64,000 nucleotides of DNA, taken from NCBI GenBank assembly GCA_946894095.1, contig OX335657.1, forward strand, positions 4,526,001 to 4,590,000, written 5' to 3'. Shown here piece after piece: positions 2,432-25,901 of this stretch (within the stretch, counting starts at the first letter, position 1; each line of letters begins with the position of its first letter). The notes beneath the pieces were generated by a model, which was not told the origin of the DNA, did no database searches, and saw nothing but the letters and a program-made list of their open reading frames with translations. The DNA is from Incurvaria masculella (Eukaryota > Arthropoda > Insecta > Lepidoptera > Incurvariidae). A program made the translations under genes and the position numbers.

Positions 2432-2587
2432 ATGCTGCGCAGCAAGATCCGGTTCCACACGTGTCGGATCATACTCCTGACTTCGCTCGTGTGGCTGCTG
2501 GTGGACGTCGCTATACTCACAATGTATTCGGACTGCCTCGGAGACAAGTGGGAGTGTGGGAAAAAACCCAACGAATTTGATGTGAGG
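2432..2587 (+). CDS. GALNT1/13-like: GalNAc-transferase exon 1: start and membrane anchor
   Basis: Encodes residues 1-52. The start [11 protein letters not shown] is followed by a hydrophobic stretch (about 13-29) with an internal Asp and Trp, as in the signal anchor of vertebrate GALNT1/13. This gives a type II Golgi protein. The donor is AGG/GTGAGT, phase 0. The ATG is chosen because it is the one directly before the basic tail plus anchor. Confidence 0.9.
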
Positions 2588-8500: not shown

Positions 8501-11500
8501 AAATTACATCTGTTTTGCTCTTTCTTGGTGTGTCAGGACACAAACTGGTCAGCAATTTTATTTTGCACACACACACACCTGGTCAATTACGACATCAGTT
8601 TTGCTCGTTCCTGTTCTCTTAGAACTGGCCAGCATTTTCCCCTCATGGAGTCTTTCGGAGCTGTATGGATTTACAAACCTAGTTTTTTTGTACCGTGTTC
8701 AACGATGCGTGCAGATGCAAGGACAAAGAGTACCCCGCGCTGCTGCCCACCACGAGTGTGGTGATCGTGTTCCACAACGAGGCGTGGACCACACTTCTTC
8801 GTACCATCTGGAGCACGATCAACCGCTCGCCGCGCCCGCTCCTGCGCGAGATAATTCTCGTGGACGACGCCAGCGAGAAGGGTACGTCGACACTTCCTGA
8901 CTTATTTTGGCAGAAGCGGTACACGGCTCCACTCAAGACAATTTCGTTTGGTATTGTATTCGTCAAATTGGCAGACAAGCTACACTCAGACAGGTCATAT
9001 TTTCTTTGCAATAAACAGAACAACAATAAATATGCATGCATCTTACAATTTCTGGCATATACCATCGTCAAATTAACTAAATAAATAAAACTGAGCTAAA
9101 TATGTCAACATAATTATTAGTCAAAGGTTTTATGATACTGGATTATCATGGTTATTTAAAAAAATCTAATTATAAATATTATACATCTGTATCAAACTAT
9201 AAATAAACCATAGAAAATGTATGGTACTGATGATGAAAAGTCCATGTGCTAACGTAATAGGCTATCTAATTACCTTTCATCGAAATCGGTTCGGTTGTTA
9301 CTGTGTGATTGAATAACAAACATCCAAACATACTAGCTCTCCCATTTTTAATATTAGTAGGTTTGTGCTGAAGAACTTTGGGTGCATGCCTAGCGATAGA
9401 TCGATGTGTATTCAGCGCTGGTGAAATGACTCCTACACCGGTGCCCTCCTTTTCCATCACCTTTGCTTTTCAACTATAATGTCGGAACTCATTCTCTTAT
9501 TCGTGAACAGGACTATCTCGGTCCTTTTGGTTTAATCTGAAATCGGTTGATCCTGATACAAGTCTTCAAATAATAGGTGTGGCAGCCATTCATGTTTAGT
9601 TACAACGAAAAAACTAAGTTTCTGTTTCTGTTTCTGTTTCTTTATTTCCTCCATTAGATGTATATTACACACTCGGATTCGTCTTTTTTTTTTTTCCTGT
9701 CGGTTCGATTACTTCTGGCGAAGAAGAGCCGACAAGAAACTTCGTCAGGTTGGTCATTGTATTATTATTTTTTTCTTTTTTTTTCCAGTGATACTTACAA
9801 ACTAGTTTACAGTGATTGATTGATTATGATGTGATTGATTGATAGTTTACAGTGATTGTCAAATTAAAAATGTTTTTGGGGGTAGCATAAGCATAAATAA
9901 TATGTCTTATTATATTAGAATGTGTTCGTATGTACCTATGTTACCGCTGTTAATTCTCTTAAATAACAATAAATAAAAAAATAAATAAATTAAATTCTTC
10001 AGCAGCGTAAACTCTTGGTTCTTGGTTTACCAGGAAGCAAAGAAAACCAAATTAATTAACAACATATTAGCCATCACATCAACATACGTGTCGGATGTCA
10101 TGAGACACTTTCACAAGTTTGTAACCATTAGTACTGATAAACTGTCAAACTGTCAACACTGCATTCTATATTTAGGGATCCTGTCTCCTGTATTTTTAAT
10201 ATTATTTCTGAGAAAATAAGCGAGTAGTTTCCTGTTACATGTAAAAGATATTCAAACTTCCTATTTTCTGGAGAGTTGTGGGCGAGGTCTCTTATGAACA
10301 TTTCAGTTTATTTAACTATTTTTATTTAGTTTAACTATTAGGTTCAGTAAAGTTGCCATTTTCTATGGAATAAACGAATAACTGAAATCCCACTAAGTTT
10401 TATAAATGGGAAAGTTTTGATTTTTGTATTTCAATAAAGTCTCCACGGCTGAACGGATTGGGATGAAACTTAGTTGATGTTTATGACATGTATTAGCACG
10501 TTGGTTACTGCTTTGGATAGAAAAAATCAGCCATACACCCATCCAGATACTATTTAATAATTAGAGATAATATCCCATGTTATCTTCTTTGTTCTATCAT
10601 TTTTAGGGTTCCGTACCGTTTTCACCCTTTGGGTACGGAACCCTATTACTAAGCCTCCGCTGTCCGTCCGTCCATCCGTCCGTCCGTCCGTCCGTCCGTC
10701 TGTCACAGGGCATCTCAGTAACCGTAACAGATAGACAGCTGAAATTTTCACAGATTGTGTATTTATTTTGCCGCTATAACAACAAATAGGTAAGATTATA
10801 AAATAATTTAAATTAAAGGGGGCCCCCATACAAAAAACGTGATTTTTTGTATTATTTTTTTGTGCGATGGTACGGAACCCTTCGTGTGCGTGTCCGACTC
10901 GCACTTGGCCGGTTTTTAATTATTTGTAGATGATTGAAGCATCTGCTATAGATTTGTAGCATTGTTGTGCGGGAATCAATACATTATTTATGGGCGATTT
11001 TTACTACCTCTTCAGAAAAAATGTTCATCCCTGCAAAAAAAAAAAAAAAAAATTTCGAAATAAATGGTAACAGCTAGAAGCAAGGTCTGGCGAGTAGGGT
11101 GTAATAGTTTCCACATGTCACTTGCCCGCAGATCACCTCGGCAAGAAACTGGAGGAATATATCTCGACGCTGCCGGTGCCGACGCACCTGTACCGCACTG
11201 AGAACCGCTCGGGGCTGATCCGCGCGCGCTTGCTCGGCGCCAAGCACGTCAAGGGCGACGTCATTACATTCCTCGACGCGCACTGCGAGTGCACAGGTGG
11301 GACCATAGATAAAAAGGATCCGTAGATATGTGCCCGCTATGAGACCCACTGTCTCCGATTAAAAAAAACCACCGACCCAACTTAAACGGACATGCCAAAT
11401 GCAAACATAGTCGCAGACGTATTGGAGGGTTTGTGTGGGTGGGAACTGACTTGACAAATGCATTTTGGGATCACATCAGCGCGCAGTGGCGATGTTTCGA

Positions 11501-14500
11501 CTGTTTGGCATACGACGCACCGCTGGATTCGGTCATTTTGACCATACAGGAGAGACTCGATATTAACCACATGCCACTCCTCGTAGGACAGTATCCTCGC
11601 ACCATTTACAATTTCATCGTTTCTTAAGCGTAGCTTCTATAGCCTTTTTGCTCTCGGTTTCTGGGGAGTAAACTGGGGAATAACTTAGGTGGGTAGACAA
11701 ATCCATTTTAAAATGAGCCGAGTCCATTTTAAAATGGATTCATCTACACATATACATACACTACAATGGGTGGACTAGGCCATTATGACGCATCCTCGTC
11801 CAAAATTGATTCAAGTAAACCCAAAGAAAAAAGCTTTATGAAAACATAATTTCGAAAGTTTGTTGAAGTTTCTAGATTACCATGTTCCAAAAAATAATTC
11901 TGGTTAAAGAGCGATCAGAGAGGAATAACTTTTGGGTCTCTGAAGTCGAGGCATCTCCTGAGCTCGGGTTCATAGTGTGTGTGTGTCGCAGAGGGCTGGC
12001 TGGAGCCGTTGCTGGCGCGCATCGTCGAGGACCGCACCACGGTCGTATGCCCCATCATTGACGTCATCTCCGACACCACCTTCGAGTACATCCAGGCCTC
12101 CGACATGACCTGGGGCGGCTTCAACTGGAAACTCAACTTCAGATGGTTAGTGTCGCTCAGCCATTTTACCCCTGTCCGTCTGCCCGTCTGTCCATCTCTT
12201 GTTATTGGCCGGGTCTTCATTTATTTGGGTTTTACTCTTTTAACTACTAATTAATTTTAACGGACCAAGAAGTGTCTATATCTTCTTAGTACGTCTCTGT
12301 CTACAAGGGACATGTAACTATGTAATAAGCTCATTGTAGTAGTTTATGACAAAACTAATAGTATTAATTAAAACCAAACTTGCAAAGGTTTCACAATGTT
12401 TTGTTGCGGGTTATCTCTTTCTCTAAAATATGGTCGAGACAGGTGATGTTTTTTTAAAAATTGACAATCAGTTTTGTAAATTTAGACTAAGTGGACGTTG
12501 AAAAAAAAACAGCGGAGTGTCTTGCCAGTTTTTCTTCGCTGTGTATTGTTTTGCTGAACTGGCTAATTTTAAAATACTGTCTATGGATGATGAATAAACA
12601 ATACAAAAAAAATATACAATACTGTCCTGATGTTATCCTAATACACCACATGGGAATTAGGTGCCGTGCTAGAACCTTAAATTCCTGATGACTTCACATT
12701 TCAATGCTACTGTGTCAGTAGGGTCGAGGAAGTATCATGATGTTTGAATTTTAATAGCATTATCGAAAAGCGAAAGTTATCTCTGCCAAGGGCACAAGAA
12801 CAATGATCAATAAATAATCAATTGTCTTGTGCATTCACACATATAGTGGTCATTGTTCCACCACACTTCCGTGATGATCTTGAAAATATACAAACACAAA
12901 CAGCTGCTGAGTTGCAGTGTGGATTGTGATTTTTTCGTTTATGGCCAATTTGTTTTAGCCAATGTTTATTCCAATCCGGGTCTATTCATTTAAATTTCGA
13001 GCAGTTTTATGAATTTTTAAAGGAACTGTCATGATAGTAACGTCGATGGCAATGATATAAGGGTTACAGTCCGATTTGAACCATCGTTACCAAAAGGGCG
13101 TTCAAAATTCATCCAATTCGCGCTAAAAGCCCTCAAAATGGCGTCCCGTGAATGGTATGACGTCATCGTTACGTCACTCGATGCCGTAAACCGTGCTCAC
13201 TCTTTGGAGGTAGGGCACTGTGTGGCAACTGTCAGTGTCACATTATGACGTTTCTATAGCGTAGTCTATCATCTTTCCACCGTGTTTTTTCACAAACCGT
13301 TGAATGTAGCTCAGTAAAATCCAAGTTCAGCTTATAGCAATTAGTTACATTAAAATTTGAGGTTAACTACTGCAACTAATGTCATTTGTTCCATGTTTGT
13401 TGTTTTGTTTCCGTAAGAGCGTACACGAACGGTCCAAATTGTTTGTGATGCTTACAACTTTAGGCGTGCTATCTGATTCCGGACGTTTTTATACGCTTTT
13501 AGCACTGTAATCGTTTATAGTTCAAAACGGACCGCATTCCCTAAGGAACTAGCCCTTTCGAACACCTTAATGACCAACAGTTGTACAGAAAGTGCAAAAA
13601 CCATGGAAAAGCTCACATTAGTGACAAAAAAGGCACTCGTCCGTTAGAATTAAGAAGAGAAAGGCTTGTTGTTATTATTATTATTGTATTGTACATGCAC
13701 AAGCAGCATCATGCTGATGCGTGCACTTCTTTTTATGCACTTGCACTTATTTATTTATCTTCTTGTCTGTTAATTATTTTATTTCAAGTGAAGATCCAGT
13801 TTGACGATACAATCATTATTTCCTCAGGTATCTGTTCCATTTATCCACAACTCCGTTTGTTAGAAAGTGTTTTCAAGGGGTTATTGATGCTTGGGTGCGA
13901 TTTAACTTTAGCGAGTGACCGCGTAACCATTGTTTTTAAATTAGCGACCTCATACGTCATGCATCATACGCTAGGCTAGGCGAGGGGACTGGCCTACCGT
14001 ACCAGAGGTCTGGGTCAATTCCTCGCCCCGACATGCACCGCTTTCTTTCTCTTTCTGAGTTTGATAAGTTCATTTCGTCACGAATTCGAGCTGCTCCATG
14101 GTTCGGACTCCATGTAAAACTGTAGATCCCCTTCCCCTACTAGGTGGTAGGGTTTAAGCCCGCCCGGGTTTGTACCATCGCATTGGATGAAAAGATGGTC
14201 GGAGCGGCAATAAAAAATTGTTTGTGTTTTCCATCCAGTTCAATTCAGCCGTGCTCATAAAGGGAAGGTCCCGGCATGGCACCTAATTCCTTCGGGAATG
14301 TGGTGTATTGGGCTAATATCATAATGGTAGTTGTGTGGTATCCATAGCCATCCATGTCAGGTTGCATAAAAAAAATGTTTCGATTATAATAATAGATGCC
14401 CATGTCTGATTTAAAAAAAAATGGATGGCGCAGGTATCGCGTGCCGGAGCGCGAGATGCGGCGCCGCGGCGGCGACCGCACGGCGGCGCTGCGCACGCCC

Positions 14501-17500
14501 ACGATGGCCGGCGGGCTGTTCTCCATCGACCGCGAGTACTTCTACCAGATCGGCTCCTACGATCAGGGCATGGACATCTGGGGCGGCGAGAACTTGGAGA
14601 TGAGCTTCCGGGTATGGGCGCGTCCGAGCATTCCTCCACTCCTCCACACCACGAAATATCGCAGTGGGTTATCTCGGTCCATCTCTACATAAATGTGTTT
14701 CGTTATGCGTGAGTCAATGAACCAAAGTAGGTGCACTTGTTTACTTTCAGCACATAAGTCCCGAGGATGACAGCACTACATTTTCTATCTGATTTGTTGT
14801 TTGTGGATTAATTTGGTTAATATGGTTAAAATAAATTGGTTCCACGAAAGACATAAAACAAGACAGTGATTTAAAACATAGGTAAACCATAGGTATAGGC
14901 AAGGTAAACATAGTTCAATTCAATCTGACAACCATAAAAAAATATTGTTGAACCCATGTGATAACTTCGAATGATTTACAAAAGATTTGTTTAAATGTTT
15001 TCTAACTATTGATTAGAGATGGATCGACCGAATTCACTTGAAAGTAATGCAAATGTTGATGCGACGATAGCAAATACGCACAGACAATATTAAATTGGAA
15101 TAACTAATTTTTTTTATGCTGAATTCACTGGACTCACCGTGAGTTGTGTTGAAAATAGATAACTACAAAGTAATTAAAAGTTGTGTTTAATTTGTGCATA
15201 TTTGCTATAAATAACAGGATTTGATTGGTATTTGTTTGCGGAAAGATAATAGGACATTCTCCATGCTTATCTCATTGTCTGGTATTATGAATGGATTCAG
15301 ATACAGTGTGAAAGACAAATAAAATGTTGAATAATCGTTCCATGAAATCCGATGTTTAGCTGTTTAAATATGGTTGTTTCAACAACTATTTTGTTTCAAA
15401 ATAGTTTACGTGCGAAATTGATATCGCTATATAATATGTTCCAGTCAAAGTCGTCTTCTTGGGCGACATGCGGCAGGCAGTTGGGTCTACATGGATGAGT
15501 CGGGATAATTGTATGACGACAAGTCCACACCAGTGTGAGTGTTAGGTGTGAAAGTGCGACGGGTGGTTTGTGATCGCATGTGGTCACACTCGGGTTCCGT
15601 GTTCCGGAACAATTCGCTGTAAACCTTCGTAGACGACGTGCGGCATGCAGTGGGCTTAGGTGGTGCTGCTTAATACAGCGAACGTCGCCGAGGTCTGGAT
15701 GAACGAGTGGAGGAAGTTGTGTGACGGCACGTAGCCAGGTGTACAGCGGTGTGAGTGCTAGGTGTGGCAGTGCGGCGGGCGGCTCGAGATCGCGCCGTGC
15801 TCGCACGTGGGCCACGTGTTCCGGGACAAGTCGCCGTACTCCTTCCCGGGCGGCGTGCAGCAGGTGGTGCTGCACAATGCGGCGCGCGTCGCCGAGGTCT
15901 GGATGGACGAGTGGGGGGAGTTCTATTACGCCATGAACCCAGGTTTGGATGCACACGACTGTGACTTCACGTTTGGTGCCCCCAATGATTTGGCTGTTGC
16001 GGAAGTTGGTTTTGCACACTTTGATTCAGAAATTTGTTTCTTCTTAGATCTGATTTCACCTGACGAAATATAAAGACGTACATTGATCAATGGCTAATCC
16101 GAAATTCGCCTAAAAATAAGTTGGTTGACAACATAATTTTCGTCTTGGAAAACCTAGTGTCCAAAATTATTAGTAAGTACACTAGGTAGAATAAACAAAC
16201 TTAGGAATATAAAATCCCGCATGCGGATGCTGTGAGCATAATTCAATTTACTGTTGACATCTTAACAGTACTGGACTAATCTTATTGATGGTTCGATACC
16301 GTAATAGCTGTCACCGTGACCAAGAACTAGACATAAACTAAACTTTAATTCAGGTTTTACATGATCTCTGCTGGGTGATTCTAGGTGCAAATAAATAATC
16401 TTTTTCAAGTCATGTTTTATAGATATTTGTAGATGACTATCTGTTGAGCAGCTCATAGCTCAGGGGCGATCATGCCAGATCATGGTTTCAATTCCCGCTA
16501 CGTTCATGCGCCACTCTCTTCCTCTTTCTGAGTTGGATAAGTGCATTTCAACACAAATGCAAACTGAGTGGTCAGTCTGAGTTCTCAACTAAATTGGCGT
16601 TTACGTAACTTCGAAGTTCCGTAAAAATGTCAAACTCCATACAAGTTTTTACTATATATTCTGTGGTTTTACTTCTTCAAGCTGTCAAAGTCAAACTTGG
16701 ACTTCCGATTTGTATGAAAACGCGGAGTCGGCGTTAACGGCAACGTCGACGTATTTATGGCAACTTTGAGTAAGCTGTCAAATCAAACTCGGACTCGCAA
16801 ATGGTAGTTCGCTTAACGCCCACTGCGCGCGCTCCTCAATTTCTCCATACATTTGAAAACGCCAGTCGGGTACTGCTCTCATCTAGTAGCCATGTTCATA
16901 AAGGGAATGTTCTGTCATGGCACCTAATTCTTTCGGGAATAAAGTGTGTTAGGCTGATATCAAGGTGGTGGGTATGGTATTAGCCAGTTAAATTATAAAA
17001 GTGACTAGGCATGCCTAATGCTGAGATTCATAGACATTACTCGATCTTGGCTTTGCCAAAGTATGGCTTCCGACTGTCAAATTTGACATTCGATCCATAC
17101 ACGTTATGTCAAAACTGACAGTGGGAAGAAATATTTTGACTTAGCTAAGTGCAATTAATGTCTATGAATCTTAGAATAAGTATTGTTTCAAAACAGTTTA
17201 AGATTAATTTTTCGTTTGTCTGAGCCTCTCAAAGCACTAAAATGCCATTGATATTCGCGTTTGGAGGTAGCAGCTGCAAGTTGAGCGCTTGTGCGCTATC
17301 AGAATCGATCAGTGCAGAGCCAATTTTTCATTTGCAACACAATCAACATCGTTATCGGGTGCATTGAACGTGAAACGAGCGTCGAGCGTTGTGAAAATGT
17401 TGTGGCGTAGCTAATAAACATGTCACTAACTCTAGAAAAACTCACAAGGAACAGCTCTCACTGATGGCAAATCTTCCAACTTGCAATGTCTTCCGACTTG

Positions 17501-20500
17501 GATTGGAGTTTTGCCACCAGTGGCGCGTTTCATTTAGAGAGATCATCATAACACTCATCATAGATTGGATCAACGTTTGGAAACTAATTGACTAACAGTT
17601 TGCAACTGCATAACCTTCACTTAACCTTTGCATGTTCGTCATTGTTTTGTTATGTTTTATCATTTTTCCTTCTTTCATCACCTCTCCCGCCTATGTCCTA
17701 CATTTTTGTCTTTGTTTTTCGAGATTTATTGAGGTGTGTGGTTGGTTATTTTGAAATGCTTTTCATGCTGTTTGTGTGTCTTGCACTCAGGGTAATAATT
17801 TATTAATGCAGTTTATTCCAAATACTAAAAATTTCTAACTTTAAAGGTCATTAGAACAATTTGAATAAAAAAATGCAAAATATCATAACGTATATGGTCG
17901 TCATGGTATGCGATCATGTAATGTTAATCGTGGCCAAAATAATTTGAATTGTATATTTTTTTCCATTGAACTTTTACATTTAAATCTGACTGATCAATTT
18001 AAAAAAGGAATTAGTAATAAAGTGACTTGCAGATTGGCTCAGAAATATGGATGCTTCAAGATCTGGGGACCTAAGGTTCGATCCCCGATTAGATCAAGTC
18101 GTGGTAGCATGTAGCACTGCGTTGCCAGGAAGAAATTGCGTCATGGCAATATAGTGACCCTTGGGTAACAAACGAATATACAACAACATCTTATCTTTTC
18201 GTTTCTTACATCTTATTTTTCAGCTGTTCTTACATAAAAATGCAGGTGCAATCTAAACTTTATTACTGCTGATGATCTTAGCAATAATATTTTGCACCGT
18301 CACAAATATACAACCCACAACATTTATTAAGGTTCCTTGGCTTAATGGAACGACCTACTTACAGTGTGAGTGAGATAGAGCAGGGTGTGTTTGAGCGTGA
18401 GTATGTTTGTCTGTCAGTGAAATTATTGTGTGGGTTGACATTGCTGTGTTTGACTGTTTGCTTTCATTGCTTTAGTTCATATTGCTTATATTACTAACCA
18501 CTAATGTGTAATTTATGTAATAGCATTAATCTTGTCATTCATAACACTAATAATGTTTACTACTGCTTTTTATAAGCACTGGCAAAGAATGGGTTATGCT
18601 CCATTTATTTATATGTATTCCGTAGACAATGCATAATATATAGTTCATTTAATTATTATCGCTACGCAGGTTACATATCAGCAGAATAGGGTAATTCTTT
18701 CCAATATAAAATCATAGATTTAAATTTTTCTGCTAAAACATTGCTCACTCCGCTTACAATTGGAACTATCACTGAGAAATGTATATTTTTTTATTGAATA
18801 AGGCCTGGATGCCTAATATTGCATCTACTGTCATGATATTTAGTAAAATTTGCTAAAAGCTTACACAACAAAGAGTTCGTTATGGTAATTTCAAAACAAT
18901 TTCTTAGGCAATAAACAAAATTTAACAATACAATATGGAACTGCCTTTAACACAGTACTTCAAGAAGCGGTGCTTTCAAATACAATAAATCTCAACACAT
19001 TTTTGAACCTGAAAATGTTCAAAGATTAAGGGCTCTGGCAACACTATGGTATCCGTCAGTTGTCAAGTGTTTGCCTTCCTTTTTACTCGCGCGGATATAT
19101 AGTTTTTGTCTCGATCTCTCTTCGGCTTTGTCCGCCCCTGCCCTGATGCGTAACATCATCTGGGAGCCAAAATAGTCCGGAGTAGAATACCAGAGGCCCC
19201 ATTCTGTACACATAACGCTATGATACCGTGCACTATATCCACAGCGGTACATACAAAAACACATCATACCATATCGTAACACTATTTTGAGGCCTGGCCA
19301 AACAGAATGCGTTTTTAGCGCACACACATGACTGGAAATTTGATTGAATTAATTAAATTAAAGGTGAAAATATTTGATCAATTAATAAATAAAACTTTTC
19401 AAATTATAAAAATTAAAAGAAATAACACATGCTCTTTTTCTCTGCAAACGTGATAATCGTTCTTTCACATCTGAATCACTGGACATTACAAGAACGAAAA
19501 ATCAAACTTTTCTTGTCAAATCCTGCTAGCAATGTGGTACACGGTACGGCTCTGGTATGTTGCAGAGCGACGCTCTGTGTGACGTTCAAAGTACGCAATG
19601 CCAAGCATAAACCTATCCTCGAAAACATTTCCTAACAAACCGAGTTGTGGATAATTGGAACAGGCCACCTGAGGAAATAATAAGTGCACCTTCAGTAAAT
19701 GTTTTCAACAACAAACTCGATCTTTACTTAAAATTAAAAAAATCGTAGACAAGAAAATAAGTAAATAAGTGCAAGTGTTTAAAAACAAAAGTGCAAGTGC
19801 ATAAAAAGAAGTGCACGCATCAGCATGATGCTGCTAGTGCATTACAATATAATAATAATAATTATATAGCGCTTTGACGATGTGCTAAAAACGCGTTCTG
19901 TTTGGCCACGCCTTTAGTGTAATGCGCCAGAATGCGGCCTCAGGCGTAGGTAGGATTCGAGCGTTGTCTACGGAATACGCGCGCCGGGTGGGGTTAGGGG
20001 TGGTGTACGAGCGGCGTTTGCCGTCAGGTGTGGACGTGCGGCGGGCGGCTCGAGATCGCGCCGTGCTCGCACGTCGGCCACGTGTTCCGCAAGACGACGC
20101 CGTACTCGTTCCCCGGCGGGACGAGCCGCATCGTCAACCACAACAACGCGCGCCTCGCCGAGGTCTGGCTGGACGAGTGGAAGGAGTTCTACTACAATAT
20201 CAACCCAGGTCACTGGCGGCGCCGCGCCCCCCCTCTCCTCGCCCTTCCCGCCCCCCTGTGGCAACGTTTCTCTAGGTGCGCCGAAAGGACAATGCCCCCC
20301 TACATTTTGGGCCCCTGCTGTATCTATCTTCCAAATCAGTGTTATAATTTAGAAAATAATATACATTTTTTCAGTTATGAATTTTGATGACCAAATCCAT
20401 TGCCATTTTAAAGTTATTGACAAAATGCGGTTTTGAGGTTATGAATGTTTAAATGACGCCCATGAGGAGAAAATGCTCCATTCCAAACGCAATAATAATG

Positions 20501-23500
20501 GACAGAGTTTAATGTCTCTTTGATATTTCATTAGCAACAATCCTTCACATACAATCAATCACTTTTATAGATGAGACCTGATCGCATTTCGTACTTTGAC
20601 GACCGAAGTAGATTCACAAATACCAAAATATACAGAAAACATTTTGGGAAAATCTTTTCTTGGGTCTGGTACGATTTTTATATGTACTTATGCGACCTTG
20701 GTGTATTCGCCCTTTACTTTGGGTGTAATTGCCTCAATTTCCAGGGAGCATAGATATAGTTCTTTCGTGTGTTCATGCTACATATTGGTTACGTGCAGTT
20801 TCCCAATTCTTCTCTCTTTTATTACGAAATGTCTCCACGGAATGCACTAAAAAAGGTTCAAATTAGTTAACCACCCACTTTGTTCCTAGTTCAAACATTT
20901 GGTGTAGAGAAACATTGCCACCTATAAATTGGACGAGGTGAACGCTCGTCACAGAAATGTGCCGATGAAAAATTGCTGATTGTGTGACCAAAGCCTGTGT
21001 GAAGCCAGGCATAAATCAGCGCTTGGTGTTGTGACAATTTCTACGCTAGTGTGTAGCCAGACATTTTGACAAATTGGTTTGCCATTATTTTGGTATCACT
21101 CGAACACTTTTAAATTCAGTTCACTTTGATTAAAAATTTCATCGTTTAAGCATTAACTGCTTTTATCAAAGGGTTTTATCTTATCTCTCAAGATCTCAAA
21201 AAAATTAAGTTTGCATAATTCATTTAGTTTTTGCAAGAAATATTTTGAATTCCTGTTTTTAATTAAAATACCATGTATCAAGACTGTTTAATTCATCTGT
21301 TGCATCGTATATTATATTTAGATCCATGATTTAAAATATAGACATTGAAAATTTTGTAGAAATCTTATTAAACTTAATTAATTGAACTGTAATCAATTTA
21401 CTCATGCATTTCAGCAAAGGAAAAATAATGTTAGTTCGTGCAGCGCAACCAATTGCTCATTCGCTCTTAGTTGTCACGGTATTGCTTGGCAACTGTAACA
21501 CACATCGGTGAACAATGAGGACTTGAAATGTAATAAAATATATTTGCATAGCGCTATTCATATTGTCATGATCATGTTTGTGTGTTTCTGTTTATTTATA
21601 TTACAATGCTCCATCATCACATGTTGTAGAATCATTATCCATATCATTAAGTAGATGCATGCTTACTCAAAATTAACAAGCTAACATTGTTTATGTGTAT
21701 TTTGTACCACCATACGCTATTTGTTCAAAAGTGAAATTGTGTGGATAGTTTTTCCCCATTTTAAAGTCTTCAAATCTTGCAAGTAATTCAAGCTAAGGTT
21801 ACCGAGGAGGTAAACTTCTGATCTTTTGATTATCCGATATATTCCAAGAAGCCACCTTAACATCTGTGGAATTTGATTTTTCATAATATCTTAAATAATG
21901 TAAAGTATGAATCGCCAATTCTGGTGACATTAAGCGCAATGCATCCGAAAATGTAAACTGTATGGTAAATCGCCACAGCACTGCAATAAATTGCCCAACT
22001 GGCTCAGGTCCAGGGTCGACGGATTATTTATACCATTCACAAGCGGCGTGAAGTCGAGACATTGACGCATGTGTGAACCTGTGCAGGCGCGTTGAGCGTG
22101 CCGGTGGGCGACATCACGGCGCGCCGCGAGCTCCGCGAGCGACTCAAGTGCAAGAGCTTTCGCTGGTACCTCGAGACCATCTACCCGGAGAGCCAGATGC
22201 CGCTCGAGTACTACTACCTGGGCGACGTGAGTAGACTGTTCGCTACGGTGTCACGCGAGTGTGACCTCACCTGTGCGTGCTGACCGTGCCGGTGGGCGAC
22301 ATCACGGCGCGCCACGAGCTCCGCGAGCGACTCAAGTGCAAGAGCTTCTGCTGGTACCTCGAGACCATCTACCCGGAGAGCCAGATGCCGCTCGAGTACT
22401 ACTACCTGGGCGACGTGAGTAGACTGTTCGCTACGGTGTCACGCGAGTGTGACCTCACCTGTGCGTGCTGACCGTGCCGGTGGGCGACATCACGGCGCGC
22501 CGCGAGCTCCGCGAGCGACTCAAGTGCAAGAGCTTTCGCTGGTACCTCGAGACCATCTACCCGGAGAGCCAGATGCCGCTCGAGTACTACTACCTGGGCG
22601 ACGTGAGTAGACTGTTCGCTACGGTGTCACGCGAGTGTGACCTCACCTGTGCGTGCTGACCGTGCCGGTGGGCGACATCACGGCGCGCCGCGAGCTCCGC
22701 GAGCGACTCAAGTGCAAGAGCTTCCGCTGGTACCTCGAGACCATCTACCCGGAGAGCCAGATGCTGCTCGAGTACTACTACCTGGGCGACGTGAGTAGAC
22801 GGTTCGCTATGGTGTTACGCGAGTGTGACCTCGCCTGTGCGTGCTGATCGTGCCGGTGGGCGACATCACGGCGCGCCGCGAGCTCCGCGAGCAAGAGTTT
22901 CCGCTGGTACCTCGAGACCATCTGCCCGGAGAGCCAGATGCCGCTCGAGTACTACTACTTGGGCGACGTGAGTAGACTGTTCGCTACGGTGTCACGCGAG
23001 TGTGACCTCACCTGTGCGTGCTGAGTGTGCCGGTGGGCGACATCACGGCGCGCCACGAGCTCCGCGAGCGACTCAAGTGCAAGAGCTTCCGCTGGTACCT
23101 CGAGACCATCTACCCGGAGAGCCAGATGCTGCTCTAGTACTACTACCTGGGCGACGTGAGTAGACGGTTCGCTATGGTGTTACGCGAGTGTGACCTCGCC
23201 TGTGCGTGCTGATCGTGCCGGTGGGCGACATCACGGCGCGCCGCGAGCTCCGCGAGCAAGAGCTTCCGCTGGTACCTCGAGACCATCTACCCGGAGAGCC
23301 AGATGCTGCTCGAGTACTACTACCTGGGCGACGTGAGTAGACGGTTCGCTATGGTGTCACGCGAGTGTGACCTCGCCTGTGCGTGCTGATCGTGCCGGTG
23401 GGCGACATCACGGCGCGCCGCGAGCTCCGCGAGCAAGAGCTTCCGCTGGTACCTCGAGACCATCTGCCCGGAGAGCCAGATGCCGCTCGAGTACTACAAC

Positions 23501-25901
23501 CTGGGCGACGTGAGTAGACGGTTCGCTACGGTGTCACGCGAGTGTGACCTCGCCAGTGCGTGCTGATTGACGTTGTTTGCTGTTACAGTAGAGCATCGAC
23601 TATTGGAAATTATACGAATGGCCACTTATCCAAACAGCCTAAAACTAAGCCAAAGAAAAGATCTATATCCTAAAAAAGTCCACGATCTGGATGCTTAAGG
23701 TCGGCCCGTAAGCACCTGAAAATTTCGCCTCCCATACAAACGTAGTTTGCTAATAATTTGAAAACCACTGTTCCAACTTACTTGATATTTGATATCTAAT
23801 ATTAGGCTACAAATATCTGTGTCTGCATGCCTTTGTTTTTTCGGTAAATGTATTCTGGGTCAAACCACAGAGAAAACAAAATTCGTATGAAAATTTTCTT
23901 TTTGCTTTCATTTCATTCGGTTTGGATTTTTCAAAAAAACAAAAGCATGCAGACACAGATATTTGTTACCTGATATTAGAAATTAAATATCAATTTAATT
24001 GGAATGGCGTTTTCCAAATGATTAGTAAACTACGTTTGTATGGGGAGCATAGCTTACGGGCCGTTCTTAAAACTTGCAGGTTAACTTTTTCAGACTAAGA
24101 TTAAGCATTTCTTTAAGCCAGTAGAAATACAAATGGCATCAGCCTAACCACCACACATTGGACTTTGAGTCACATATGTTTTCCTTGCAAAATACCAATG
24201 CCTATTTTGTTGCCGAGGGTGATGCGCCATGTCCATTCATATAATGTTTGTATGCATGCATGTATTACAGGTTTACATGTGTAGGAATAAAATAATATAT
24301 AAGTCATAAATATGTATCTTGGGGCGGATTTTTCAATAGTCAGATAACTATTGGACGAATTTATTGACGCCGCTGCTAATCCTTTCGTTGTAGTAAGTCC
24401 ATATTGTTATTAGCAAAATTACATTAGGATAATAGTGATAAAAAAATATTCATGTACATATAGGGGACAATTATCTGAATACCCATTTCTTTTGCTTAGT
24501 TCATATAATCGGTGCTCTACTGTACTAGCTAAGTTAGTTAGTTGGGCAAAAGGTTTTCCGCGCTAAGCCTATACTTATTACTATTACTACTTATATACTT
24601 ATTACTAGTACTAGCTTATTACTACTACTGTTACGGAACCATGGTTTGGTGCCGGTCTCTCAACGTCTCACGTCAAACGTCTCAATTTCTAGACTGATTT
24701 CTAACGTGTCCTTTTATTTTGTTTGATAGAATGATTAAAAAAAAGAAACGATTTTTTCTGCAGATTCGCAATGCTGAAACGAGCAACTGTCTGGACACGC
24801 TCGGCGGCAAGGCGGGGCAGCCCCTCGGCATGGGTTACTGTCACGGCATGGGGGGAAACCAGGTAACCACATCCCCTCCCTCTGTGCAAATGTATGCATA
24901 TACCCACCTGCCTCCTACTAAAAATGTATGTTCATTGCAGTCAATGTCCGCAATGCAGGTAAAACGTTAAAATCTGTTTTATTCAAATTTTATGGAAACC
25001 TCATAATTTTTTTCATGTTGCGAGAGACCGTTTAAATATATCTTAACATATGAAAACCAATTTAAACAATAATTATCAATCACCAGGAGTTTCTGGTGAT
25101 AAATTCAAACTCATGTATCTCTTGACTCCAGTTTATTAGTGGAATAAAGAATCAAATGATTAAGAAATAATAAAGAAAATAGTAAAAAAATCTAGGAAAA
25201 AAGAAACCGTATGTTTTTTCAACATGCCGCGAGTGACAGATTAAAAATACCACCCCAAGTTTGAGTTTTCCTCACCACAATACTTCACATAACGCTTGAC
25301 ATAAACAAGCCCGTGCATTGCATTTCAGGTGTTCGCGTACACAAAGCGAAAGCAGATAATGTCCGACGACAACTGCTTGGACGCGTCGAGCCCGCGCGGG
25401 CCCATCAAGCTCATCCGCTGCCACGGCATGCGCGGCAACCAGGAATGGACCTATGACAACAAGGTATGTCAATCCAACCAGTGATGTCAACACACGCTAT
25501 TTATTTATTTATAAATGTTTATTGCACTTAAAATTCGGGCAAAAGGTACAACTTAATGCTAGGGGCATTCTCTACCAGTCCACCTTTGGGTATCGTGAGC
25601 AGTAGTGCGAGTAGCAGTGATAGAGACAAATGAATTTACTACAACTACATTTCGCGAAAACTTGGTAAATTTGAGAGACGCACCATGCATTTGGTTGATC
25701 GTGATGTGTTGACAGGCGCGGACGATTCGGCACACCAACACGGGCATGTGCCTAGAGAAACCGGACTCGGGAGACCCATGGAAGCCCCTGCTAAGGTCGT
25801 GCGACCACACGCTCGGCCAACAGTGGGTCATGAAGTCGGAGTTCAAGTGGCAGGCGCGCGACAGCTCGCACGCGCGCGGTCGCCACCACGACGACAGCTA
25901 G
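2432..25901 (+). CDS. GALNT1/13-like: Polypeptide N-acetylgalactosaminyltransferase (12-exon gene)
   Basis: Starts mucin-type O-glycosylation by moving GalNAc from UDP-GalNAc to Ser/Thr of proteins in the Golgi lumen. Exons: 2432-2587, 4417-4624, 7765-7894, 8715-8881, 11132-11296, 11992-12145, 14434-14611, 15762-15942 or 20028-20208, 22087-22226, 24764-24862, 25329-25463, 25716-25901. All introns are GT-AG and the phases chain without a break to 632 residues. Order: short cytosolic tail, membrane anchor about 13-29, acidic stem to about 130, GT-A catalytic domain about 165-450, ricin-type lectin domain about 490-620. The metal-binding D269-A-H271 and H404 and the W376-GGEN motif are present. 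Wording of the conserved blocks is closest to human GALNT1/GALNT13; the stem is about 70 residues longer. The Drosophila counterpart is probably pgant9, from memory. Exon 8 is alternative and exon 9 is followed by a decayed tandem array. Confidence 0.95.
2588..4416 (+). other. Intron 1
   Basis: About 1.8 kb, mostly AT-rich and apparently unique. A GC-rich patch lies at 3875-3960. No recognisable repeat, RNA gene or exon was seen. Confidence 0.6.
4417..4624 (+). CDS. GALNT1/13-like: GalNAc-transferase exon 2: stem region
   Basis: Residues 53-121 plus one base. Highly charged and low complexity (Glu/Arg/Gly/Pro), with no fold signature, as expected for the luminal stem. Ends in GGQPGEM, which lines up with the GEMG...I segment just before the catalytic domain of GALNT1. 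Acceptor CGTTCAG, donor G/GTGAGT, phase 1. Confidence 0.85.
4701..4970 (-). repeat. LINE-like 3' tail repeat, minus orientation
   Basis: The reverse complement recurs at 6598-6872, and shorter versions lie at 12455-12612 (+) and 60537-60645 (-). In sense orientation it contains AGTGGACGTTG, an A-run, a GAACTGGC block and ends in ATGAATAAACAATACAA with an ATACA-type tail. That tail is typical of a non-LTR retrotransposon 3' end. It lies in intron 2. Confidence 0.6.
4973..5360 (+). repeat. SINE with tRNA-like head
   Basis: About 390 bp. The head has TGGCGCAGGGCTTAG (A-box-like) and GGTTCAAATCC (B-box-like), followed by a body shared with many other copies in the window (CTTTCTGAGTTGGATAAG, GGTGGTAGGGTTAA, CCAGTTCAATG, GGCATGGCAC, and a tail about TATTAGCCA). 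It should be mobilised by a LINE and transcribed by RNA polymerase III. It sits in intron 2 of the GalNAc-transferase gene. A fragment of the same tail recurs at about 5540-5595. Confidence 0.65.
5398..5450. repeat. Short palindromic MITE remnant
   Basis: Both ends carry GGCGTTTACGG in opposite orientation. The same termini bound longer copies at about 16575-16875 and 48358-48695, so this looks like an internally deleted copy of that MITE. Confidence 0.5.
6598..6872 (+). repeat. LINE-like 3' tail repeat, plus orientation
   Basis: Inverted partner of 4701-4970, about 1.6 kb downstream in the same intron. Ends in GATGAATAAACAATACAA plus further ATACA units. The two copies could pair as a long hairpin in the pre-mRNA. 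The stretch between them (5600-6597) shows only a CT-run near 5875-5888. Confidence 0.6.
7190..7320 (+). repeat. LINE-like 3' end fragment
   Basis: Contains TTTCTTGTCGGCTTTTC and ends in TAATGGAGGAAATAAATAAAC. A minus-strand copy lies at about 9625-9745. This matches the style of insect non-LTR retrotransposon 3' UTRs. No coding sequence remains. Confidence 0.5.
7365..7548 (+). repeat. Exact 92-bp tandem duplication
   Basis: Two back-to-back copies (7365-7456 and 7457-7548) that look identical. They lie about 215 bp upstream of exon 3. Each holds a TTTGCAG that resembles a splice acceptor, but no open exon follows it. Confidence 0.85.
7765..7894 (+). CDS. GALNT1/13-like: GalNAc-transferase exon 3: start of catalytic region
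   Basis: Residues 122-164. Contains the family block [20 protein letters not shown], which precedes the first catalytic Cys in GALNT1/13. Acceptor TTTTCAG, donor AA/GTGAGT, phase 2. Confidence 0.92.
7895..8714 (+). other. Intron 3
   Basis: About 820 bp, AT-rich, with a short CA-run near 8566-8578. Nothing else is recognised. Open frames at 8465-8900 are shadows that run into exon 4. Confidence 0.6.
8715..8881 (+). CDS. GALNT1/13-like: GalNAc-transferase exon 4: N-terminal nucleotide-binding part
   Basis: Residues 165-220. Contains [19 protein letters not shown] and [11 protein letters not shown], the two hallmark blocks of the GT-A fold in this family (UDP-binding beta strands). Acceptor GCGTGCAG, donor AAGG/GTACGT. 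Confidence 0.95.
8940..9135 (+). repeat. Interspersed repeat, copy 1
   Basis: A second copy in the same orientation lies at 53415-53620. Shared words include GTATTCGTCAAATTGG, TCTGGCATATACCATCG and GCTAAATATGTCAA. It begins about 60 bp after exon 4. The family is not recognised. Confidence 0.6.
9136..10600 (+). other. Intron 4, left part
   Basis: AT-rich. It contains a minus-strand LINE-like 3' fragment at about 9625-9745 (partner of 7190-7320) and a short GATTGATT patch near 9815-9850. No gene is seen. Confidence 0.5.
10600..10916 (-). repeat. GGTTCCGTACC interspersed repeat, minus orientation
   Basis: Read on the minus strand it starts near AAAAACCGGCCAAGTGCGAGT, has AGGGTTCCGTACCAT, a run of GGAC units (plus-strand CCGT at about 10663-10700), and ends GGGTACGGAACCCTAAAAA. 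Sense copies lie at 32458-32738 and 59151-59430. It is a high-copy element of lepidopteran type from memory; its class is not certain. It lies about 215 bp upstream of exon 5. Confidence 0.7.
11132..11296 (+). CDS. GALNT1/13-like: GalNAc-transferase exon 5: DxH motif
   Basis: Residues 221-275. Contains [22 protein letters not shown] and [12 protein letters not shown]269 and H271 form the DxH motif that binds manganese and the UDP diphosphate. Acceptor GCCCGCAG, donor ACAG/GTGGGA. Confidence 0.96.
11385..11600 (+). repeat. Interspersed repeat, copy 1 of pair
   Basis: Resembles 61870-62075 in the same orientation (shared words: GCAAACATAGTCGCAG, GATGTTTCGACTGT, CATGCCACT). Intron 5 holds no other feature I recognise. 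Confidence 0.5.
11992..12145 (+). CDS. GALNT1/13-like: GalNAc-transferase exon 6
   Basis: Residues 276-326 plus two bases. Contains [22 protein letters not shown] and [11 protein letters not shown], the core of the catalytic domain near the acceptor site. Acceptor TGTGTCGCAG, donor TG/GTTAGT. Confidence 0.96.
12455..12675 (+). repeat. LINE-like 3' tail next to a SINE tail fragment
   Basis: 12455-12612 is the third copy of the 4701-4970 family (plus sense, ends GATGAATAAACAATACAA). 12632-12675 is a short antisense piece of the common SINE tail (CCACATGGGAATTAGGTGCC). Confidence 0.55.
12676..13978 (+). other. Intron 6, middle part
   Basis: No gene is supported. The stretch 13690-13785 contains AGCATCATGCTGATGCGTGCAC and recurs inverted at about 19795-19840, where it follows a LINE reverse-transcriptase C-terminus. 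It is therefore probably a LINE 3' UTR. The 132-codon frame at 13581-13979 overlaps it and has no recognised domain. Confidence 0.45.
13979..14361 (+). repeat. SINE copy in intron 6
   Basis: Same order of blocks as the SINE at 4973-5360 (GAGGTCTGGGT head, CTTTCTGAGTTTGATAAG, TAGGTGGTAGGG, CCAGTTCAATTCAGCC, GGCATGGCACCTAATTCC). It ends about 70 bp upstream of exon 7, so the branch-point region of this acceptor lies next to SINE sequence. Confidence 0.7.
14434..14611 (+). CDS. GALNT1/13-like: GalNAc-transferase exon 7: WGGEN motif
   Basis: Residues 327-386. Contains the [16 protein letters not shown] and [15 protein letters not shown] blocks. W376-GGEN is the Gal/GalNAc-transferase motif that contributes to UDP and acceptor binding. 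Acceptor TGGCGCAG, donor CGG/GTATGG, phase 0, compatible with both forms of exon 8. Confidence 0.96.
14612..15437 (+). other. Intron 7, left part
   Basis: About 825 bp of AT-rich sequence with no repeat, exon or RNA gene that I recognise. Confidence 0.5.
15438..15528 (+). pseudogene. Decayed partial copy of exon 8 (oldest)
   Basis: Reads GACATGCGGCAGGCAG, then a CTACATGGATGAGT stretch, then ACACCAG followed by a TGTGAGTGTTAG. It aligns with the second half of the decayed copy at 15546-15738, and through it with exon 8a, but lacks an internal block of about 40 bp. No usable reading frame. Confidence 0.6.
15546..15738 (+). pseudogene. Decayed full-length copy of exon 8
   Basis: Begins right after a TTAG acceptor-like site with GTGTGAAAGTGCGACGGG, against GTGTGGCAGTGCGGCGGG in exon 8a. 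It then follows 8a along its length through GTCGCCGAGGTCTGGATGAA to GTAGCCAG/GT. It is 193 nt instead of 181 and carries stops and frame changes, so it cannot encode the active-site loop. It is separated from 8a by only 23 nt, and the last part of that spacer (GTGAGTGCTAG) matches the one before this copy. Confidence 0.8.
15762..15942 (+). CDS. GALNT1/13-like: GalNAc-transferase alternative exon 8a
   Basis: Residues 387-446 in one isoform. Contains WQCGGRLEI, the metal ligand H404 in HVGHVFR, and the mobile loop [11 protein letters not shown]. Acceptor GTGCTAG, donor CCAG/GTTTGG, 181 nt. Compared with exon 8b it is 45 of 60 residues identical. Its loop is less basic (D408 where 8b has K408) and its second half departs from the GALNT1/13 consensus, so 8a is probably the derived copy. 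Joining both 8a and 8b would shift the frame (181 is not a multiple of 3), so they must be mutually exclusive. Confidence 0.9.
16446..16990 (+). repeat. SINE interrupted by a MITE
   Basis: A SINE head (CTCATAGCTCAG at 16452, CTTTCTGAGTTGGATAAG) runs to about 16573. A palindromic MITE with GGCGTTTACG and AACGCCAGTCGG ends follows (about 16575-16875). SINE tail words (CATGTTCATAAAGGGAA, CATGGCACCTAATTC) resume to 16990. The MITE therefore appears nested in the SINE. Some SINE body is missing. Confidence 0.55.
16991..19010 (+). other. Intron between exons 8a and 8b, AT-rich part
   Basis: About 2 kb without a recognised gene or repeat family. 17040-17170 has short GTCAAATTTGACA-like inverted words. 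Selector or docking sequences for mutually exclusive splicing could lie here, but none can be named by eye. Confidence 0.4.
19270..19916. repeat. Element with inverted ends holding a LINE relic
   Basis: AGGCCTGGCCAAACAGAATG near 19290 is matched in inverse by CGTTCTGTTTGGCCACGCCT near 19895. Inside, 19515-19750 (+) reads as the C-terminus of a CR1/Jockey-type reverse transcriptase (a frame-broken [26 protein letters not shown]), followed by its 3' UTR with an AATAATAAT tail. The inverted ends may belong to a DNA transposon or be flanks of two insertions. Confidence 0.45.
20028..20208 (+). CDS. GALNT1/13-like: GalNAc-transferase alternative exon 8b
   Basis: The other version of residues 387-446. 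Contains [10 protein letters not shown]404 in HVGHVFR, and the loop [11 protein letters not shown] followed by [18 protein letters not shown]. It is closer to the GALNT1/13 consensus than 8a, so it is probably the ancestral exon. Acceptor CCGTCAG, donor CCCAG/GTCACT, 181 nt, same phase as 8a. The first 65 bases differ from 8a at only a few sites while the rest differs at many. Confidence 0.92.
20209..22086 (+). other. Intron 8
   Basis: About 1.9 kb, AT-rich after a short C-rich stretch at 20220-20310. No repeat family, exon or RNA gene recognised. Confidence 0.5.
22087..22226 (+). CDS. GALNT1/13-like: GalNAc-transferase exon 9: hinge to lectin domain
   Basis: Residues 447-493. Contains [23 protein letters not shown] and [16 protein letters not shown] (given here as two blocks), the end of the catalytic domain and linker. 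Acceptor CTGTGCAG, donor GAC/GTGAGT, phase 0. This is copy 1 of the tandem array and the only one with an acceptor. Confidence 0.95.
22098..23568 (+). repeat. Tandem array of eight exon-9 units
   Basis: Units start (at GTGCCGGTGGGCGAC) at 22098, 22286, 22474, 22662, 22850, 23027, 23215 and 23392. Spacings are 188, 188, 188, 188, 177, 188, 177 and about 177. Each unit is most of exon 9 plus its donor and about 55 bp of intron. Units 5, 7 and 8 share an 11-bp deletion (CGACTCAAGTG). Two sequence classes alternate (ACTGTTCGCTACGG and ACGGTTCGCTATGG). Few substitutions separate units, so the expansion is recent. Confidence 0.95.
22286..23568 (+). pseudogene. Seven extra exon-9 copies without acceptor
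   Basis: In every extra copy the acceptor CAGGCGCGTTGAG of the true exon is replaced by CGTGCTGA-type sequence with no phase-compatible AG. Copies 2-4 keep an open exon frame, copies 5, 7 and 8 are frameshifted by the 11-bp deletion, and copy 6 has an in-frame TAG (near 23134). All keep the GTGAGT donor. If the first donor is skipped, translation stops at the TGA after CDLTCAC at 22281-22283. Confidence 0.85.
23695..24070. repeat. Palindromic MITE with TTAA ends, copy 1
   Basis: Both ends are TTAA. The left arm (GGTCGGCCCGTAAGC, then CATACAAACGTAGTTT) is the inverse of the right arm (AACTACGTTTGTATG, then GCTTACGGGCCGTTC). The centre is also inverted (CTGCATGC.TTTGTTTTT against AAAACAAAAGCATGCAG). 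TTAA target sites and palindromy suggest a piggyBac-mobilised foldback element. Second copy at 36610-36985. Confidence 0.7.
24071..24763 (+). other. Intron 9, right part
   Basis: AT-rich. A low-complexity TACTTATTACTA patch lies at about 24570-24630. No other feature. Confidence 0.5.
24764..24862 (+). CDS. GALNT1/13-like: GalNAc-transferase exon 10: lectin repeat alpha
   Basis: Residues 494-526 (33 codons). Contains [15 protein letters not shown] and CHGMGGNQ: the CLD and GGNQ pieces of the first ricin-type (beta-trefoil) repeat that binds GalNAc on already glycosylated substrates. Acceptor TTCTGCAG, donor CAG/GTAACC. Confidence 0.95.
25329..25463 (+). CDS. GALNT1/13-like: GalNAc-transferase exon 11: lectin repeat beta
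   Basis: Residues 527-571. Contains [20 protein letters not shown] and [10 protein letters not shown], the second trefoil repeat with its QxW motif. Acceptor ATTTCAG, donor AAG/GTATGT, phase 0. Confidence 0.95.
25716..25901 (+). CDS. GALNT1/13-like: GalNAc-transferase exon 12: lectin repeat gamma and stop
   Basis: Residues 572-632 and TAG. Contains [24 protein letters not shown] (third QxW) and a basic, His-rich tail ending RGRHHDDS. The tail is longer than in human GALNT1. Acceptor GTTGACAG. Confidence 0.93.
   Translation, partial: ARTIRHTNTGMCLEKPDSGDPWKPLLRSCDHTLGQQWVMKSEFKWQARDSSHARGRHHDDS

What the first reader, a model, noticed from the sequence alone, without database searches (positions are those of the whole stretch)
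15762..20208. Mutually exclusive exons swap the active-site loop of a GalNAc-transferase
Exons 8a and 8b have the same length (181 nt), phase and splice style, and both encode residues 387-446. This segment contains the third metal ligand (H404, equal to His359 of human GALNT2) and the flexible catalytic loop ([11 protein letters not shown] or [11 protein letters not shown]; Arg362-Ser373 in GALNT2). Using both would shift the frame. Fifteen of 60 residues differ, with 8b more basic. Splicing would thus change loop closure and substrate choice. Drosophila Pgant9 is known to make two splice forms with different substrate preference, but as I recall the swapped part there is in the lectin domain, so this would be a different switch.
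Basis: partly seen in the sequence, partly recalled or inferred. Interest (0 to 1): 0.85.

Follow-up and report, generated by a model that had tools for sequence, protein, structure and literature searches.

The report
Alternative catalytic-loop exons in moth PGANT5
A moth or butterfly gene for an enzyme that starts sugar chains on proteins carries two interchangeable exons that swap the enzyme's substrate-gripping loop between an acidic and a basic version; the same switch is already described in fruit flies, and the comparison here suggests it is far older than the fly salivary proteins it was thought to have evolved for.

Summary
Observation confirmed. Exons 8a (15762-15942) and 8b (20028-20208) are intact, 181 nt, same phase, and encode alternative versions of residues 387-446 (15 of 60 differ); using both, or neither, gives a premature stop. 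The gene is a lepidopteran ortholog of Drosophila pgant5 (GALNT1).

The novelty claim fails: Drosophila pgant5 has this switch (residues 398-457; loop DKS in 5A, KST in 5B), with kinetics, rescue and a variant's crystal structure in a December 2025 preprint (PMC12776162). 8a is A type, 8b is B type.

Added here: A rows of insects, a copepod and a lobster form one clade apart from B (94/91, 60 columns), with a probable pair in a millipede. A-like segments carry Asp in 53 of 55 distinct cases even when typed without the loop. So the acidic loop predates Drosophila salivary mucins, against the preprint's proposal. Pgant5 is enriched in a moth's middle silk gland (PMC12661448), so isoform use is testable in public reads.

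Also seen: dead 8a copies upstream, and an eight-copy array from exon 9 in which only the first copy has an acceptor. No RNA evidence was available.

The parts
2432..2587 (+). exon 1: start codon, N-terminal hydrophobic segment (residues 13-31), a likely signal anchor
4417..4624 (+). exon 2 (stem)
7765..7894 (+). exon 3
8715..8881 (+). exon 4 (start of GT-A catalytic domain)
11132..11296 (+). exon 5 (D269-A-H271 motif)
11992..12145 (+). exon 6
14434..14611 (+). exon 7 (WGGEN motif), donor shared by 8a and 8b
15437..15533 (+). fragment of a probable older decayed copy of exon 8a
   Evidence: local alignment score 22.5 against at most 16.0 in 200 simple letter shuffles
15527..15738 (+). dead copy of exon 8a with its 3' splice flank: stops in all three frames, indels
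   Evidence: 72% identity over 15546-15738
15762..15942 (+). exon 8a, A type: H404, acidic loop [11 protein letters not shown], apolar helix I
20028..20208 (+). exon 8b, B type: H404, basic loop [11 protein letters not shown], polar helix I
22087..22226 (+). exon 9, the only copy of the array with an AG acceptor
22275..23509 (+). seven further copies of exon 9 (188 or 177 nt units): GT in place of the AG acceptor, GT donor kept, three with 11-nt deletions
24764..24862 (+). exon 10 (lectin domain)
25329..25463 (+). exon 11 (lectin domain); one search printed its start one base early, mended
25716..25901 (+). exon 12 (lectin domain, stop codon)

Best explanation
This is a lepidopteran pgant5 (GALNT1) gene with its A/B pair of alternative exons. 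Shown here: the two exons, their shared phase, and a reading frame that stays open with exactly one of them. Shown by comparison: 8a groups with the A exons and 8b with the B exons of other insects, and the two occur together in insects and in at least two crustaceans. Inferred: each transcript carries one exon, chosen by tissue, and doubles or skips are lost through premature stops. Inferred from Drosophila PGANT5 experiments: the A loop, with Asp at residue 408, favours basic acceptor peptides; the B loop, with Lys there, resembles human GALNT1 and does better on already glycosylated peptide and perhaps acidic ones. In a moth a likely place for the switch is the labial (silk) gland, where Pgant5 is enriched in Plodia; that last step is a proposal.
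For: Gene model and frame logic. GALNT1 is the closest solved relative, 529.8 bits against 401 for PGANT9; the model of a moth ortholog matches mouse GALNT1 at 65% identity. Nearest named proteins are PGANT5 isoforms of Lepidoptera. In 12 of 12 same-species pairs that I picked from the listings by name and contig length, the two proteins differ only in this 60-residue block: 15-19 differences inside, 0 outside, no gaps. A clade: 30 of 30 rows on one side of a branch, support 94/91 (not starred, bootstrap not settled). With the loop columns left out of the typing, 53 of 55 A-like distinct segments have Asp and 84 of 89 B-like have Lys, 1 tie. Drosophila 5A/5B: DKS against KST, 2.7-fold kcat/KM difference on a basic mucin repeat, traced mainly to D419 (PMC12776162, section read).
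Against: No RNA reads for this species, so exclusive use is not shown. The donors match GTRAGT at 1 of 4 (8a) and 2 of 4 (8b) positions; exons 5, 7 and 10 also have 2. The 8a acceptor follows a dead exon copy and has a 17-base pyrimidine fraction of 0.41, against 0.18 (exon 7) to 0.71 elsewhere, so 8a could be used rarely. No RNA pairing between the flanking introns rose above resampled sequence. The Pro/Thr difference that affects fly isoforms is absent: both window exons end in N-P. Window 8b departs from the B majority at 2 of 10 type-defining columns. In the tree a horsehair worm, an acorn worm and one pseudoscorpion row fall next to the A side, so A-likeness alone does not prove the same duplication.
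Confidence: 0.9

Rival explanations
1. One of the two exons, most likely 8a, has become a silent relic in this species, and the gene makes a single isoform.
For: 8a lies at the end of a run of decayed copies and has the weakest donor of the eleven non-terminal exons by this simple count (1 of 4 positions of GTRAGT) and a pyrimidine-poor acceptor flank (0.41; exon 7 is lower still).
Against: 8a is intact and its protein is 97% identical to the Brenthis A exon, whereas the copy next to it, 72% identical in DNA, has stops in every frame. It follows the A majority at 10 of 10 type-defining columns (typing was by likeness to the window exons, so this is partly circular). Anticarsia and Maniola have annotated A-type isoforms.
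Confidence: 0.07
2. The A and B exons arose separately in flies and moths by repeated duplication of one exon (convergence).
For: The exon is prone to copying: dead 8a copies here, at least two A-like copies in Dendroctonus, two copies in Lingula. PMC9741552 treats such vertebrate, fly and worm events as convergent (passages). Only 60 columns carry the signal, and Gordionus and Saccoglossus rows fall near A without any known pair.
Against: The tree puts all 30 A rows of insects, copepod and lobster on one side of a branch (94/91), and A stands before B in 13 of 13 joined two-exon models of insects and crustaceans.
Confidence: 0.05
3. Two separate genes or an assembly duplication rather than alternative exons.
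For: Local duplications are plentiful (exon 9 array, 8a copies).
Against: Only exon 8 was found with two intact copies; each other coding exon except 9 was found once (blastn and tblastn), and the two exons differ at 37 of 180 nt. The window's whole genome could not be searched.
Confidence: 0.02

Closest known systems
Drosophila pgant5 isoforms A and B (PMC12776162; UniProt Q6WV17-1/-2 as cited there)
   Same: Orthologous gene, same 60-residue block, same loop difference (Asp-Lys-Ser against Lys-Ser/Thr-Thr), apolar against polar helix I.
   Different: In the fly, A ends in M-S-T and B in F-Y-P; in the window both end in N-P. Window B has T at two type-defining columns (389, 409). Tissue use unknown in the moth.
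Drosophila pgant9 isoforms A and B (PMC6115407)
   Same: Alternative exons of a GalNAc-transferase change the charge near the active site and the substrate preference.
   Different: The pgant9 swap is exon 8 of that gene in the lectin alpha repeat, not the catalytic loop; a different family member.
Tandem duplicated exons in GALNT13, Pgant5 and gly-5 (PMC9741552)
   Same: The same gene family is listed with tandem duplicated exons in vertebrates, arthropods and nematodes.
   Different: That paper presents such cases as convergent; I could not see which exon is doubled in human or worm.

Membership tests
Polypeptide GalNAc-transferase (GT27; family label recalled) | GT-A catalytic domain followed by ricin-type lectin domain | tested here: met
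   PF00535 127.7 bits (cut-off 23.3), PF00652 98.6 bits (cut-off 29)
Polypeptide GalNAc-transferase (GT27; family label recalled) | DxH motif, third His ligand, WGGEN motif | tested here: met
   D269-A-H271, WGGEN at 376, H404; ligand role by alignment to PGANT9
Polypeptide GalNAc-transferase (GT27; family label recalled) | GalNAc transfer to Ser/Thr | not testable with these tools
   needs an enzyme assay
PGANT5 / GALNT1 orthologs | closer to GALNT1 and to PGANT5 than to other family members | tested here: met
   best solved match GALNT1 529.8 bits, next family member PGANT9 401; nearest named proteins are PGANT5 of Lepidoptera
PGANT5 A/B exon pair | two intact tandem exons of equal length and phase for the loop and helix I-turn-helix II block | tested here: met
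PGANT5 A/B exon pair | type-defining residues (10 columns) | tested here: met
   8a follows A at 10 of 10, 8b follows B at 8 of 10; types were assigned by likeness to 8a and 8b, control without loop columns
PGANT5 A/B exon pair | Thr in A against Pro in B at the end of helix II, as in Drosophila | tested here: not met
   both window exons end in N-P; Thr in 3 of 128 A-like rows, Glossina twice and Lucilia, and in Drosophila by the preprint. A fly trait, not a defining one
PGANT5 A/B exon pair | mutually exclusive, tissue-specific splicing | not testable with these tools
   no RNA data; frame logic only

The most novel reading that the evidence does not exclude
The acidic/basic loop toggle of PGANT5 is an ancestral device of mandibulate arthropods for sorting acceptor proteins by charge, kept by selection across insects and crustaceans, recruited to labial-gland secretions more than once (fly salivary mucins, moth silk coat), and part of a wider tendency of this one exon to be doubled in animals.
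Probability: 0.4. Interest if true: 0.6.

Novelty: new member of a known kind. Interest (0 to 1): 0.4.

Why it matters
The exon pair turns one enzyme into two that, in the fly, differ in charge preference. Its depth (insects, copepod, lobster, probably millipede) means that the Asp loop of PGANT5A did not arise for the basic salivary mucins of Drosophila, as the preprint proposes, so its general role is open. It also re-opens a dismissed link in moths: the Plodia paper judged Pgant5 unlikely to modify sericins because it has no signal peptide, but this family is held by an N-terminal hydrophobic anchor (recalled), and exon 1 here encodes such a segment. Public silk-gland reads can test which isoform is used.

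Tried and rejected
Long-range RNA pairing as the basis of exclusion: the best complementary stretches between the three introns scored 32.5, 34.5 and 38.5 against maxima of 39.0, 35.5 and 45.5 in 25 Markov resamples each; nothing above chance, though one genome has little power. Gene conversion between 8a and 8b in the first third: 18 of 20 shared codons identical in columns 1-21 (11.8 expected from codon use) and 19 of 25 in columns 22-60 (16.3 expected), Fisher p = 0.27 between the parts; not shown. A third live alternative exon, or alternative lectin exons of the Pgant9 kind: none found by blastn and tblastn. Exon 9 copies as alternative exons: rejected, because 7 of 7 lack AG at the acceptor place. 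Structure models of two moth orthologs (P0019, A type; P0124, B type) gave the expected fold with the lowest catalytic-domain confidence at the loop (10-residue blocks of 78 and 80) but no way to compare substrate grip; only the B model was searched against the PDB. Literature on gly-5 splicing (one paper listed) and on lepidopteran isoforms (two papers listed) gave nothing by their listings; I did not open them. PMC3385985 lists fly pgant5 with a splice index of 0.49 in a TDP-43 knockout (passages), but which exon is affected is not said. Whether A-type exons exist outside Mandibulata stayed open: only the best 120 of 1045, 239 and 357 hits are listed.
Full report
What is there. The + strand of 2432-25901 holds a 12-exon gene for a 632-residue polypeptide GalNAc-transferase: N-terminal hydrophobic segment, stem, GT-A catalytic domain, ricin-type lectin domain. 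Exon 8 exists in two intact versions, 8a and 8b, each 181 nt, in the same phase, with AG/GT borders, coding residues 387-446. They differ at 37 of 180 nt and 15 of 60 residues. Isoforms with either one are open to the end; both together stop early in exon 10, none stops early in exon 9. So only one exon per message keeps the frame.

What the block holds. It carries H404 and the loop that align with the GHIFR histidine and following loop of PGANT9; PMC6115407 names His437 as Mn ligand and Arg440-Arg448 as the active-site loop (passages), and I matched the numbers by their spacing. In models of two moth orthologs the block runs from a strand through a loop of lower confidence into helix I and helix II ahead of the lectin domain. 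Net charge of the 60 residues is -2 in 8a and +1 in 8b.

It is pgant5. Among solved structures GALNT1 is far the best match (529.8 bits; PGANT9 401). The nearest fetched proteins are PGANT5 isoforms of Lepidoptera: Maniola 82%, Cydia 80%, Anticarsia 78% identity (names). The order Lepidoptera is therefore well supported; the species is not determined.

The switch is known. PMC12776162 (bioRxiv, December 2025; abstract, sections 7, 9 and 11 and passages read) reports that Drosophila pgant5 yields isoforms A and B that differ in residues 398-457: loop D419-K420-S421 in A, K419-S420-T421 in B; A prevails in salivary gland; A is about 2.7-fold more efficient on the basic Sgs1 repeat, mainly through D419; helix residues act on overall activity and lectin function. 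PMC9741552 (passages) names GALNT13, Pgant5 and gly-5 among families with tandem duplicated exons in vertebrates, arthropods and nematodes, and presents such cases as convergent. My literature searches, judged by their listings and by passages of five opened papers, showed no paper on the insect-wide history of the pair; most subscription journals are not held.

How old is it. Three protein searches (the best 120 listed of 1045, 239 and 357) brought 268 proteins. In 12 of 12 same-species pairs that I chose from the listings, X1 and X2 (or equivalent) differ only in this block. Of 17 proteins with more than one copy of the block, 13 are two-exon fusions of insects and crustaceans (P0002-P0012, P0014, P0015), and all 13 have A before B. 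The other four: P0001 (beetle, several A-like copies, B last), P0121 (millipede, a DRS copy before an RTT copy), P0016 and P0064 (distant relatives with other loops). A tree of 85 rows by 60 columns puts all 30 A rows (insects, copepod, lobster) on one side of a branch (94/91), with the first millipede copy next to them (93/76). Against a simple story, rows from Gordionus and Saccoglossus (96/79) and one pseudoscorpion (92/92) then also fall on the A side. The other 44 B rows, chelicerates among them, group with the second millipede copy (83/88). The bootstrap had not settled and 60 columns resolve little; P0009, P0014, P0015, P0016, P0064 and every protein without an organism in my list were left out, identical segments counted once.

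The Asp. Of 118 A-like 60-residue segments, 117 have the loop DKS and one (a Dendroctonus copy) GQT. After I set aside 18 proteins (non-arthropod, fused, odd or distant ones, that beetle and the millipede among them), 50 of 50 distinct A segments have Asp and 76 of 77 distinct B segments have Lys. Because types were assigned by likeness to the window exons, I repeated the typing without the loop columns on all 145 distinct 60-residue segments: A-like 53 Asp, 1 Gly, 1 Lys; B-like 84 Lys, 2 Arg, 1 Asp, 1 Val, 1 Ser; 1 tie.

What follows. The A loop with Asp was present in the ancestor of the winged insects (dragonfly and mayfly rows included) and, by the tree, of insects with copepod and lobster. 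This goes against the preprint's suggestion that PGANT5A evolved for the basic salivary mucins of Drosophila; those mucins may instead suit an old enzyme, or A has another general client. The Thr at the end of helix II, which lowers fly A activity, is seen in 3 of 128 A-like rows (Glossina twice, Lucilia); two other fly rows, Diamesa and Bradysia, have Pro. The brachiopod Lingula also has two copies of the block (loops KAT, then KVS), but neither groups with arthropod A, and the second goes with a bivalve row (100/99), so a separate doubling there is likely.

A place to test it. In the moth Plodia, Pgant5 is strongly enriched in the middle silk gland (PMC12661448, passages). Its authors judged it unlikely to modify sericins because it lacks a signal peptide. 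The window ortholog has a hydrophobic N-terminal segment (mean hydropathy 2.42 over residues 13-31), as expected for a type II Golgi enzyme (recalled), so that argument is weak. Their reads are public.

Splice signals and mechanism. Donors of 8a and 8b match GTRAGT at 1 and 2 of 4 positions; the other ten donors of the gene match at 2 to 4, three of them at 2. The 8a acceptor flank is pyrimidine-poor (0.41), but that of exon 7 is poorer (0.18). Weak sites would suit regulated exons. The intron between 8a and 8b is 4085 nt, so steric exclusion is unlikely (inference). No intron pairing above resampled sequence was found. How one exon is chosen is unknown.

Exon debris. 8a is preceded by a dead copy (72% identity, stops in all frames) and a probable fragment of another. 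Exon 9 heads an array of eight 188/177-nt units; copies 2-8 keep the donor but have GT where the acceptor AG should be, so they are best read as intronic.

Verdict. Observation confirmed; interpretation right in mechanism, wrong in novelty; worth keeping for the evolutionary contradiction and the silk-gland test.

Noticed in passing
22087-23567: Tandem array of eight units grown from exon 9 and its donor side; only the first unit has an AG acceptor, all eight have GT donors, and three have an 11-nt deletion.
   Followed up: partly
15437-15738: Decayed copies of exon 8a directly upstream of the live exon, so its acceptor flank lies in former exon sequence.
   Followed up: partly
P0001 (Dendroctonus ponderosae), about residues 381-590: A gene model with at least two A-like copies of the block (one with loop GQT), a partial third and a partial B copy: the cluster seems expanded in this bark beetle.
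   Followed up: no
P0226 (Lingula anatina), residues 241-387: Two copies of the same block in a brachiopod, loops KAT then KVS; the second groups with a bivalve row, neither with arthropod A.
   Followed up: partly
42520-43571: Mariner-type transposase (HTH_48, E 1e-17, for 42520-43167); it seems to go on in another frame to 43571, judged by eye from the ORF list.
   Followed up: no
5010-5117, 14017-14124, 16490-16597 and neighbours: Dispersed repeat family in the introns of the gene (83% and 63% identity to the first copy).
   Followed up: no
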